The notes: generated by a model from the sequence alone, not told the origin. 64,000 nt of DNA from Thermoplasmatales archaeon I-plasma (GCA_001856825.1 ATMD01000002.1:124004-188003); one strand, 5' to 3'. Counted from the stretch's first letter, positions 29,759-35,361 are shown. Numbers and translations are program-made.

Positions 29759-29794
29759 TTTTATAAAAGTAAGGATTGCAATATTGGGAGGGGT
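29759..29794 (+). promoter_or_regulatory. Putative archaeal TATA box and Shine-Dalgarno for the T4SS-like operon
   Basis: TTTTATAAAAG at 29759-29769 and GGAGGGG at 29787-29793, four nt before the ATG at 29798. Confidence 0.6.
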
Positions 29795-29797
29795 TAA

Positions 29798-30143
29798 ATG
29801 AGATTATTAGCACTGGCATTGACCCTGGTAATTATCACCGTGGTTCCAGTAGCATTTGTCCACGGAACGGCGACAAACCAATATCCTGTACCATCTGCAT
29901 CGGACAACGCTTCAACTATTAACGGGGATGGTCCAGAGGGCTTTCGGTATCATTGCAGGGGTATCTGGGCTGATTATAGCCATACTCTGGGTACCGATAG
30001 CTATAGGCTATTTTTCTAAGGACATGGATAGGAAAGCGGATGCGAAGGAGAGAACAAAGGATGCGCTGATAGGCACGGTCATATTCGTTATGGCAGTAAG
30101 CGGAGTCCTCTACGCAGTTGTACACTATATCGTCGCAGGATAG
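29798..30143 (+). pseudogene. VirB2/TedC-like pilin candidate, split by an apparent 1-nt frameshift
   Basis: ORF 29798 has a signal-peptide-like MRLLALALTLVIITVVPVAFVHG. Frame 3 from 29928 encodes MVQRAFGIIAGVSGLIIAILWVPIAIGYFSKDMDRKADAKERTKDALIGTVIFVMAVSGVLYAVVHYIVAG (two TMs, charged loop). Removing one G of GGGG 29924-29927 joins them. Confidence 0.6.
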
Positions 30144-31777: not shown

Positions 31778-33347
31778 CAAGAAACTCACCTCTGTAATCC
31801 AGAAGGAATGGTACTACATTGATCATGGAGCCGCCCACTCATTCCTCTTCACTAGGGACTTCCCCTTCGAAATTGATCCAAAATTCAAGCTCAAGATTTC
31901 TGCAGAGAGGGAGAACGTGGGGGAAATTGTCAGGATACATCCTGTAGAGGAGAATTCGGCATGGAATATCATAACAAGGGAGTTTGGAAGGAGGAGCATG
32001 AGGCTGATCGACCACGATAGAATAAATGACAGAAACGTAGAATCAAACAAGCTGACGGTGCAGAACATAGTCAGCCTGAAGGAAGGAGTTGCATCCGGTA
32101 GATCCAAGCTATTGAAATTTTCCAGTGCCTATTTTGTAACAGGGGAGGCAGACAAGGTACTCAGGACAAAGAAGGAATTGCTTGAGGACCTTAAGAAAAT
32201 AGGGGTCAAGGCAGAGAACAAGAGATTTTCTGACGCAAGGGTGAGGAACAAGATCATCGGAGGTCAGCTTGAAGGCGTTTACTTGGACATAAATTCTGTT
32301 TCAAACATGATACCCGTCAATCGTGGATACTTGTTTCAGGAGAAAGGGACTTTCTATGGAACGTGCGAGATAACTGGCGCACCAGTTTTCATGGATAGAT
32401 CCGGATTTCCTTCATCGCACCAGCTTGTACTTGGAATGACTGGGTTCGGAAAGTCCTTTTTTGTGAAGGCAACAATGTTGAGAGAGAAGGTCACTAGAAA
32501 TGTCAGCCTGAAGATCATAGACCCTCTAGGTGAATACGGGAATGTAGCTAAGTCGGTCGGGATGCAGACGATTGACCTCATCAATCAGGAGATGAACATG
32601 TTCGCCAGAGTCCAATTTCTTTCAATCAAGGAGAACGTGGATAGAACGCTTGCACTATTGCTTACTCTCTTTGACCTGGATAACGAGGACAGCGGGATAC
32701 TTGATACTGGGCTGACCAAAATGTACGAGCAGAACGAGAATCTGGGCTTCTTGAAGAACTACGTGAAATCCAGGGGAGCAGAAACATACAACAAGATTTC
32801 ACCCATATTTGAGGGATCACTCAAGAAGTTCTGTTCCGGGAAGAACCCAAACCTAACAGGGGATGTAAGGATAGACTTGAAAAATGTTCCTAAGAAGCTT
32901 TTGCCATTCTACATGCTTCTGTCACTCGACCTGTTCATGAGAAGCGAGGAAGAAGGACCCGCGAATTTAGTGATCGACGAATCGCATTACCTCCTCCAGG
33001 AAAGGGTGATCACTTCTGTAGAGCGTTACATAAGACACGCAAGGCACAGCAGGATTTCCCTCATATTCATCTCTCAATCGGCTAATGACTTCCTGAAATA
33101 CGGGCCTTCTGTGACGATAATGGAGAACTGCTCTATTCACATCCTGTTCAGGCACCAGGTAGTATCAGATGATATGGTGAAATTCTATAATCTTGACGAA
33201 AGTCTTGCAAATTTCCTGAAATCGGGAGCAGGGTTCAACGGGAAGTATTCTACAGCGCTTTTCTACTGCCCAGGTTTCACCACTATCCTACGTTTCCAGT
33301 CCAGCAAGAAGGAGATTGAGAACATAGATGGAATTCCTAAGAGTTGA
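31764..33347 (+). CDS. VirB4/HerA-like conjugation ATPase
   Basis: Walker A GMTGFGKSF, Walker B-like NLVIDESHYLL, SRISLIFISQSANDFL; preferred start MTSYDKK at 31764 (track gives 31746). Confidence 0.75.
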   Translation: MTSYDKKLTSVIQKEWYYIDHGAAHSFLFTRDFPFEIDPKFKLKISAERENVGEIVRIHPVEENSAWNIITREFGRRSMRLIDHDRINDRNVESNKLTVQNIVSLKEGVASGRSKLLKFSSAYFVTGEADKVLRTKKELLEDLKKIGVKAENKRFSDARVRNKIIGGQLEGVYLDINSVSNMIPVNRGYLFQEKGTFYGTCEITGAPVFMDRSGFPSSHQLVLGMTGFGKSFFVKATMLREKVTRNVSLKIIDPLGEYGNVAKSVGMQTIDLINQEMNMFARVQFLSIKENVDRTLALLLTLFDLDNEDSGILDTGLTKMYEQNENLGFLKNYVKSRGAETYNKISPIFEGSLKKFCSGKNPNLTGDVRIDLKNVPKKLLPFYMLLSLDLFMRSEEEGPANLVIDESHYLLQERVITSVERYIRHARHSRISLIFISQSANDFLKYGPSVTIMENCSIHILFRHQVVSDDMVKFYNLDESLANFLKSGAGFNGKYSTALFYCPGFTTILRFQSSKKEIENIDGIPKS

Positions 33348-35361
33348 ATCGATAACCCCCTTAAGGGAGAATGATCCCTTTCTGCTCTCCTGGATAAGGA
33401 GCGGCAGGTCCATAGAGTTCCTGTTTCTGAAGAGAGAAGGAGAACACGCAAAGATTTATTCGTGCAGGGGAAACGATGAATTCCTCAGGAAGGTGGGGTG
33501 GAAGTTTTCAGAATCGAAGAGTTTCGAAGGAAGAGGAAGACGGATATTCGTGAAGGGCGATTCCCACTTTCTGAAGTTTGGAACGGAAAACTATGCTGAT
33601 AAGATCCTAGAGCTATTGAACGAGGAGAAGTCGGGTTTCCTGAAGATGTCAATAGAATCTCACTACTTTCAGTCGGTGAGGAAGGAGGAATTAAGGGAAA
33701 AGGTCACGGATAGAAAGATCAATGAGGTCAAGGGATGGAAAGTCGTCCTGGAATTTGATAACGTAAATTTGGGCGATTATCTCTCCCACATTTTCTCTTC
33801 TCCAAAAGTGAGTGCGAGGAAGGGAAGGTTCGGATTCAGGAACCCCGTGATTGCATGGTGGGAAATCCACCAGTTCATTCCTACGAAAACGCATTCCAAC
33901 GACAAAGGAGATGTTAAGGTTGGTGCAACAATAAACAGGGGAGATGTTTTCATAGACTCAAGAAAGAATCCTCACACTTTGATCGTAGGCTCATCGGGGG
34001 CTGGGAAAAGCTCGATGATAGTCAGCATGATGAATCACATTCTCAGCAACAGGCTGGGGAAGGTGATGTTGATAGATCCACACGGGGATACAGCAAAGAA
34101 AATGGAGGAGTATGATTACAAGAAATATGTCATCTCTCCAGATTCACAGAACTCATTCAATCTGATAGGCAGCTGGAATGAAAAAGGAATGGCTTACAGG
34201 GTGGCAGAAGACTTTGTTTCAATACTTAGGTCCTCCAGAGAGGTACAGTACACAGACCCGCTTGTAGGACCAAGGATGGAGGACCTGATAACAAGGGGGA
34301 TCTCGTTGCTCGCCGGAATCAAGGGGATGACACTGGTGGATTTCTATAATATTTTGAAGGACCCGGTGGTCAGGGAAGAATTGAAAAGCAAAGACCAAAC
34401 AGGACAGCTCAATAAATTCCTCGATGAACTTGGCAAAATATCCAACGATGAGAAGGCAAGCACAGAAAGGGCAATAGGCAGACTTGTGAACGACCCAGTC
34501 ATTCGTACACTCATCTGTGATCCAGACGACGAAGGTGCCTTAATGAGAGCAATCAGTCAGGCGGACCTCATAATATTTGATCTTGAGAGGAGCAGCATCG
34601 GCTATGAGGATTCAAGGCTGCTGTCAAATATTTTGACCCTTTATGTGTGGATAACCATATCAACGATAAGGAAAGGTGATTACTTCCTATTCCTGGAAGA
34701 AGGGCAGGACTACCAGAGCACCCTAATAGGGGATATGCTAAGCTCGGGTCGAAAGTTCGGACTAAGGATATTCTTCCTCACGACTTCGTTGAGGTCTATA
34801 TCGGATAATATCGGAACCCTCTTGTTTTCAAACGCTTCCAATTACATTTTCATGAGGCTTACGGAGCCAGACAGGATAAAGATAAATGAATTTACCGGCC
34901 TTGATCTTGACCCACCAAAGGATTCGTTCGAATTTCTGCTTCTGTCCCCGTCAGGACAGGAGAAAGGGATAGTGAAACCCATGCAGTTCTCCAATGAAAG
35001 CAGGGAATTCAGGACAAGGGATTTCGATTTCATAACAGAAAGGAAGAGTAAAGGACTGTCCTCCGAAATAGAAGAAATGGTCATGGAGATGAAGAATAAC
35101 GATTCAACTTACTTCATACTTGAAGAGTTCTGTCAAATTCTGAAGGAGTACGACAGGTCGGAAGTCATATCCACCCTGAAGGAGAAAATTGCAAGAGATA
35201 ATGATATTCATTTCGTAGGCAGGATCACTATTGATTCGGGAATATTCAGGGGAAGGCACGAATGTTTTCAGGTACGTGGAAGGAAGCTTGCAGATTCAAC
35301 CATGAGAAAAGATTTCAAGATCACGAGCGACTTGATTTCTAAGATATTGGAAAAGAAATGA
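33328..35361 (+). CDS. VirD4/HerA-like P-loop ATPase (type IV secretion / coupling protein-like)
   Basis: HTLIVGSSGAGKSSMIVSMMNHIL, VMLIDPHGDTAKKM, FLFLEEGQDYQS, RIFFLTTSLRSI. Confidence 0.75.
   Translation: MEFLRVESITPLRENDPFLLSWIRSGRSIEFLFLKREGEHAKIYSCRGNDEFLRKVGWKFSESKSFEGRGRRIFVKGDSHFLKFGTENYADKILELLNEEKSGFLKMSIESHYFQSVRKEELREKVTDRKINEVKGWKVVLEFDNVNLGDYLSHIFSSPKVSARKGRFGFRNPVIAWWEIHQFIPTKTHSNDKGDVKVGATINRGDVFIDSRKNPHTLIVGSSGAGKSSMIVSMMNHILSNRLGKVMLIDPHGDTAKKMEEYDYKKYVISPDSQNSFNLIGSWNEKGMAYRVAEDFVSILRSSREVQYTDPLVGPRMEDLITRGISLLAGIKGMTLVDFYNILKDPVVREELKSKDQTGQLNKFLDELGKISNDEKASTERAIGRLVNDPVIRTLICDPDDEGALMRAISQADLIIFDLERSSIGYEDSRLLSNILTLYVWITISTIRKGDYFLFLEEGQDYQSTLIGDMLSSGRKFGLRIFFLTTSLRSISDNIGTLLFSNASNYIFMRLTEPDRIKINEFTGLDLDPPKDSFEFLLLSPSGQEKGIVKPMQFSNESREFRTRDFDFITERKSKGLSSEIEEMVMEMKNNDSTYFILEEFCQILKEYDRSEVISTLKEKIARDNDIHFVGRITIDSGIFRGRHECFQVRGRKLADSTMRKDFKITSDLISKILEKK

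What the first reader, a model, noticed from the sequence alone, without database searches (positions are those of the whole stretch)
29759..35361. Compact T4SS / Ced-Ted-like DNA-transfer operon in a housekeeping context
Seen directly: five co-directional tightly packed genes encoding a signal-peptide plus two-TM small protein, a polytopic membrane protein, a small membrane-anchored protein and two P-loop ATPases. Established knowledge: VirB2/VirB6/VirB3/VirB4/VirD4 form the core of conjugation systems, and archaeal Ced/Ted machineries use reduced sets of these for DNA import. Inference: this is a minimal archaeal DNA-exchange machine. No relaxase or VirB11-like ATPase was recognised, and flanking genes (M24 peptidase, Topo VI, GINS51, 23S) look chromosomal, which favours a domesticated DNA import/export apparatus over a mobile conjugative element.
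Basis: partly seen in the sequence, partly recalled or inferred. Interest (0 to 1): 0.87.

Follow-up and report, generated by a model that had tools for sequence, protein, structure and literature searches.

The report
Minimal archaeal type IV DNA-transfer machine
An uncultured acid-loving archaeon carries, next to its replication and ribosomal genes, a stripped-down version of the bacterial mating machine that is kept by natural selection and passed down with the chromosome, and that most likely passes DNA between cells.

Summary
Five packed co-directional genes at 29798-35361 encode a VirB2-type pilin, a VirB6-like channel, a membrane-anchored protein, a VirB4 motor and a second motor ATPase. 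(1) As assembled, the pilin is frameshifted by an extra G (29924-29927); an intact protein with the window's own residues exists in databases. (2) The operon runs into a sixth gene, GINS; the 14/20/4-nt overlaps are identical in six genomes. (3) Gene 3 is more than VirB3: it is a VirB3/PrgI hairpin plus the first part of VirB4's N-terminal domain. Relatives carry natural gene 3-VirB4 fusions whose predicted fold matches TrwK/VirB4 over its whole length (E 5e-22), not HerA. The four-gene core recurs across Thermoplasmatales and in two further Thermoplasmata families; VirB4 tracks the families; dN/dS is 0.04-0.1. Best reading: a resident minimal T4SS that works like Ced/Ted. Machine identity is about 0.9 likely, DNA exchange about 0.6; direction of transfer and DNA as cargo are untested. 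A Cuniculiplasma genome paper already listed such a cluster, without a pilin, VirB3 or DNA-exchange interpretation. It is not a member of Ced or Ted as defined, and the second ATPase is not proven to be VirD4.

The parts
29759..29768 (+). TATA-box-like AT-rich sequence ~30 nt upstream of the pilin start
   Evidence: Read directly (gttttataaaagtaagg); inference, no promoter assay; the sigma-70 scan does not cover archaeal promoters
29798..30143 (+). VirB2/TedC-type pilin (signal peptide + two TM helices, 114 aa when intact); frameshifted in this assembly
   Evidence: PF18895 T4SS_pilin in 27 of 29 family members, best 1.7e-8; hydropathy
29924..29927 (+). GGGG tract carrying the extra base that puts signal peptide and pilin core in different frames
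   Evidence: DNA alignment of 8 sequences; exact position; intact protein P0062
30158..31192 (+). VirB6/CedA-like polytopic membrane protein (344 aa, about 7 TM)
   Evidence: family alignment A1; AF2 model pLDDT 72; Foldseek top five = R388 VirB6 with prob 0.51-0.96 but E 0.14-0.73; no Pfam match
31193..31777 (+). VirB3/PrgI-like TM hairpin plus first part of the VirB4 N-terminal domain, as a separate gene (194 aa)
   Evidence: PrgI PF12666 in 3 of 20 members, best 0.0023; hhalign to N-terminus of natural fusions prob 96.7, E 4e-10; VirB3 PF05101 0.004 on a fusion
31764..33347 (+). VirB4-family ATPase: rest of the N-terminal domain + RecA-like motor (527 aa), Walker A GMTGFGKS, Walker B DES
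33328..35361 (+). Second FtsK/HerA-superfamily motor ATPase (677 aa, no TM), tentative coupling protein
   Evidence: DUF87/AAA_10, TrwB_AAD_bind in 6 of 12 members; CedB best NCBIfam family; hhalign to VirB4 motor 97.9%; confined to family f1 apart from remote relatives
35358..36005 (+). GINS replication protein, last gene of the operon
   Evidence: Gins23 NCBIfam 1.6e-13, Sld5 4.6e-4; ATGA overlap conserved in six genomes

Best explanation
The locus encodes a chromosomal, vertically inherited, minimal type IV secretion machine of monoderm type: VirB2-like pilin, VirB6-like channel, VirB3-like anchor joined to part of VirB4's N-terminal domain, VirB4 motor and, in this family only, a second motor that may act as coupling protein. 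Proposed mechanism: the pilin enters the membrane by a signal peptide and assembles a VirB2-type pilus on a VirB6 platform (inferred); gene 3 anchors VirB4 at the platform and completes its N-terminal domain (shown by fold and profile comparison, interaction inferred); VirB4, with the second ATPase, drives single- or double-stranded chromosomal DNA between cells of the population for recombination, as in Ced/Ted (inferred). Co-transcription with GINS would tie expression to replication (inferred). Machine identity about 0.9; DNA exchange as function about 0.6; direction unknown.
For: VirB4 identity by profile and full-length fold; pilin; VirB3/NTD1; VirB6 fold ranking; conserved cassette; families monophyletic in the VirB4 tree with 100% support; dN/dS 0.04-0.1; no relaxase; identical overlaps. 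Ced and Ted do the comparable job with VirB2/B4/B6 homologs (PMC9905601; PMC11868833).
Against: No experiment on any Thermoplasmata member. VirB6 match is below significance by E-value. Cargo is not shown: relaxase-less T4SSs can serve other functions (Patescibacteria, PMC12102498). CryoEM of Cuniculiplasma and Oxyplasma reported only type IV pili and archaella (PMC12448462). The pilin is broken in the window's own assembly.
Confidence: 0.62

Rival explanations
1. The same T4SS machine is used for something other than DNA: export of proteins, or a pilus for attachment or contact between cells, as proposed for relaxase-less Patescibacteria T4SSs.
For: No relaxase. In other Thermoplasmata families the pilin often carries a large extra N-terminal part or has a large secreted or membrane protein gene immediately upstream. 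Patescibacterial T4SSs have a similar gene set and are thought co-opted.
Against: In family f1 no secreted cargo gene lies in the operon, and the co-transcribed non-T4SS gene is a DNA replication factor. Known archaeal relatives with this reduced set exchange DNA.
Confidence: 0.25
2. An integrated conjugative element or its remnant.
For: VirB4 relatives occur on plasmids. The same genome does hold a second, separate VirB4-like gene at the start of contig C3.
Against: Same chromosomal slot in 11 family members, family-monophyletic VirB4 tree, purifying selection, no relaxase, GINS in the operon. The plasmid hits to this VirB4 are only 21-24% identical.
Confidence: 0.06
3. Unrelated HerA/FtsK repair ATPases beside unrelated membrane proteins.
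For: Both ATPases match DUF87 (HerA central domain) in Pfam.
Against: VirB4 beats HerA in profile and fold searches; the true HerA is elsewhere at C3:48933-50420; pilin and gene 3 are T4SS-type.
Confidence: 0.03
4. A T4SS that is being lost in this species, given the frameshifted pilin.
For: The frameshift at 29924-29927.
Against: Intact pilin P0062 has exactly the window's residues (9 member sequences); all downstream genes are open and under purifying selection. An error or strain variant in a G tract is simpler.
Confidence: 0.06

Closest known systems
Thermoplasmatales T4SS gene cluster listed in Cuniculiplasma divulgatum (CSP5_1185-1189; PMC5155288)
   Same: VirB4 (arCOG04034), a multipass and further membrane proteins in one cluster, same order of archaea; most likely the same system, since the cassette is found throughout this order
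   Different: That paper gives an annotation line only: no pilin, VirB3 or N-terminal domain assignment, no DNA-exchange proposal for this cluster; its VirD4-type gene lies elsewhere (CSP5_0791)
Ted system of Thermoproteales (TedA/TedB/TedC)
   Same: Reduced chromosomal set: pilin with cleavable signal peptide, VirB6-like channel, VirB4 (PMC9905601)
   Different: The described Ted has no VirB3-like part; here a VirB3-like gene is present and VirB4 is split or fused. No HerA/Rad50/ParA-type genes seen in this operon. Direct sequence comparison with Ted proteins was not possible
Ced system of Sulfolobales (CedA, CedA1, CedB, CedD)
   Same: VirB4 N-terminal domain divided between two proteins (CedB/CedD), chromosomal, VirB2- and VirB6-like parts (PMC11868833)
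   Different: Here the split is pre-motor (hairpin + NTD1 without ATPase) rather than two ATPases; VirB4 is far closer to CD1110-type VirB4 (6e-22) than to CedB (1e-3) or CedD (1e-5)
Relaxase-less T4SS of Patescibacteria (MPF-FATA)
   Same: VirB4, PrgI/VirB3, VirB6, PF18895 pilins, a separate VirB4-NTD-like protein (TrsD), mostly no relaxase
   Different: That study found no VirB3-VirB4 fusions, whereas relatives here have them; TrsD and PrgI are separate there, joined here; different domain of life and cell envelope

Membership tests
VirB4-based type IV secretion machine (broad) | VirB4-family ATPase with its N-terminal domain | tested here: met
   fold match over full length of the natural fusion; gene 3 supplies the first part of the domain
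VirB4-based type IV secretion machine (broad) | VirB3/PrgI-like two-TM anchor next to VirB4 | tested here: met
   PrgI 0.0023 in relatives, VirB3 0.004 on a fusion, two TM helices in the model; individual scores are weak
VirB4-based type IV secretion machine (broad) | VirB6-like polytopic channel protein | tested here: inconclusive
   Topology and position fit; Foldseek top five are VirB6 but E 0.14-0.73; no sequence match
VirB4-based type IV secretion machine (broad) | VirB2/TrbC/PF18895-type pilin | tested here: met
   27 of 29 members match PF18895, best 1.7e-8; the window's own copy scores below Pfam's cut-off
Conjugative element | Relaxase (MOB) | tested here: not met
   No PF03432 match in the whole 93%-complete genome; other MOB families not searched
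Conjugative element | Coupling protein VirD4/TcpA | tested here: inconclusive
   Second ATPase is of the right superfamily; families CedB, VirB4, TrwB and HerA compete; no TM anchor
Ced system | CedA/CedA1/CedB orthologs | tested here: not met
   VirB4 and second ATPase far below the CedB/CedD curated cut-offs; CedA and CedA1 sequences not compared
Ced system | DNA-damage-induced DNA import | not testable with these tools
   Needs genetics
Ted system | TedA, TedB, TedC homologs in a chromosomal locus | not tested
   No Ted sequence was available; pilin profile against PDB chains gave no match to solved archaeal pili

The most novel reading that the evidence does not exclude
Thermoplasmata possess an ancestral, vertically kept DNA-exchange machine, a euryarchaeal counterpart of Ced/Ted, with a true VirB3-like anchor (reported as absent from archaea) and, in this family, expression coupled to the replicative helicase cofactor GINS.
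Probability: 0.45. Interest if true: 0.8.

Novelty: new variant of a known kind. Interest (0 to 1): 0.62.

Why it matters
How euryarchaea exchange chromosomal DNA is largely open. If this machine does so, cultivable relatives in the same order offer a direct test. The VirB3-like part also bears on a published statement that VirB3 homologs are absent in archaea (PMC11868833), and the gene 3/VirB4 split and fusions give a natural series for how VirB4's N-terminal domain is assembled.

Tried and rejected
HerA/FtsK repair ATPases: rejected. Mobile element: disfavoured. Pseudogene reading of the pilin: disfavoured by P0062. Pilin and VirB6 profiles against PDB sequences gave nothing. First gene 3 comparison (A4 against A6) failed because the N-terminal columns of A6 were mostly gaps; repeated with fusions only. 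Same-genus genomes G002 and G005, which seem to lack the cassette, also lack GINS and Topo VI-B, so the locus is simply not assembled. Metagenome and genome scans with VirB4 gave two relatives each. CagE_TrbE_VirB (PF03135) does not match in this genome. The dN value for GINS against L034 is a frame artefact of my coordinates and was ignored.

Full report
What is there. On the + strand at 29798-36005 lie six packed genes: pilin, VirB6-like, gene 3, VirB4, second ATPase and GINS. The overlaps gene 3/VirB4, VirB4/ATPase and ATPase/GINS are 14, 20 and 4 nt, identical in the window and five relatives, so GINS belongs to the operon. The 23S rRNA gene follows at 36275-39197. On the other side are an M24 peptidase, an HTH protein and Topo VI-B.

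The pilin. These sit in two frames: the window has GGGG at 29924-29927 where seven relatives have three bases at the aligned position, and all of those relatives have an open frame. Database protein P0062 (114 aa, 9 member sequences) has exactly the window's residues in one frame. The broken frame is therefore not general in the species; a sequence error or a strain variant cannot be told apart here. Members of the pilin family match Pfam T4SS_pilin in 27 of 29 cases, best 1.7e-8. In families f1, f3 and f4 the pilin has an N-terminal signal-like segment; in f6 it does not. That mirrors the difference between TedC (cleaved) and CedA1 (not processed) reported in PMC9905601.

VirB4 and gene 3. 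All 29 VirB4 relatives match the CD1110 VirB4 model, best 1e-64. Against solved structures the best hit is bacterial VirB4 (3.5e-28), HerA following at 3.9e-15. In part of family f6 the two genes are one; the model of such a natural fusion (L056, 684 aa, pLDDT 85) has two TM helices, two alpha/beta stretches and the motor. It matches R388 TrwK/VirB4 with E 4.7e-22 and TM-score 0.64 by query length; HerA structures stay near 0.3. The separate gene 3 family aligns to the N-terminal 212 residues of the fusions with 96.7% probability and E 4e-10 over 184 columns; the subset without f6 members is weaker (81%, 1.2e-5). PrgI and VirB3 Pfam models give weak matches at the hairpin. So gene 3 is a VirB3-like hairpin plus the first part of VirB4's N-terminal domain, comparable to the separate TrsD of MPF-FATA systems (PMC12102498) and to the CedB/CedD division (PMC11868833).

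VirB6 and the second ATPase. The VirB6-like family has no Pfam match. Its model (pLDDT 72) returns R388 VirB6 chains as the first five hits, with probabilities 0.51-0.96 but E-values 0.14-0.73: suggestive, not proof. The second ATPase is an FtsK/HerA-superfamily motor; CedB, VirB4, TrwB and HerA models all match its motor region, its close relatives are confined to family f1, and more distant ones occur elsewhere. A coupling role is plausible and unproven.

Distribution and inheritance. All 11 assembled f1 loci keep Topo VI-B, HTH, pilin, VirB6, gene 3, VirB4, ATPase and GINS in order; the M24 gene is seen there in three of them only. Apparent absences in G002 and G005 are assembly gaps, since GINS and Topo VI-B are missing too. 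Across the order the core recurs in other chromosomal surroundings, with an extra small membrane gene between gene 3 and VirB4 in f3 and f4. The VirB6 profile is found in 105 of 251 class Thermoplasmata genomes, with the cassette also in f12 and f13; it is absent from several other families. The order is not uniform: in f4, complete genome G021 lacks it while G017 has it. Every family tested is monophyletic in the VirB4 tree. dN/dS against the closest relative is 0.04-0.1 for the operon genes, GINS 0.066.

Mechanism. Shown: homology of the motor, its N-terminal domain, the anchor and the pilin; operon; selection; residence. Inferred: pilus, channel, DNA cargo, link to replication. A relaxase-less T4SS could carry other cargo or only attach cells, so function is held at about 0.6. 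Direction is unknown.

Relation to the literature. A T4SS cluster in Cuniculiplasma was listed in 2016 (PMC5155288). A 2025 cryoEM study of two Thermoplasmatales reported type IV pili and archaella and mentions neither T4SS nor conjugation (PMC12448462). A 2025 T4SS review covers archaeal conjugative plasmids, and searching it for CedA gave nothing. Only openly licensed papers could be searched. I found no account of the class-wide cassette, the pilin, or the gene 3/VirB4 split.

Not tested: sequence comparison with Ted proteins, HHpred-scale searches of VirB6, complex prediction, reads, any experiment.

Noticed in passing
own genome contig C3:2-6126 (L071:26-6126): A second VirB4-like ATPase gene cut by the contig start, followed by a 1679-aa protein with a weak T4SS-DNA_transf match; it branches apart from the f1 VirB4 clade in the tree. 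Probably a separate, possibly mobile T4SS.
   Followed up: partly
own genome contig C4:497167-498831: A 554-aa TraG/VirD4-like ATPase with what looks by eye like a C-terminal PD-(D/E)XK nuclease-like region, with relatives in most same-genus genomes; a possible remote coupling protein.
   Followed up: no
L039 (G008) 1-10632: Mosaic identity: pilin, M24 and HTH about 95% to the window, but VirB6 to GINS only 59-79%. Recombination at the locus or a chimeric low-coverage (2x) MAG.
   Followed up: no
L050:13826-18685 and L051:2926-6678: In family f4 five (L050) and four (L051) tandem genes with pilin-type C-termini, most with large N-terminal parts, precede VirB6; reminiscent of the pilin arrays of Patescibacteria.
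   Followed up: no
L065:10921-11901: An actin/ParM-like gene (resembles Ta0583, from memory) lies shortly downstream of the cassette in G033, whose length fits Thermoplasma volcanium (from memory).
   Followed up: partly
L120-L125, L132, L134: Large secreted or membrane proteins (534-1852 aa) often sit directly upstream of the pilin or VirB6 gene in f3, f13 and one f6 genome; possible adhesins.
   Followed up: no
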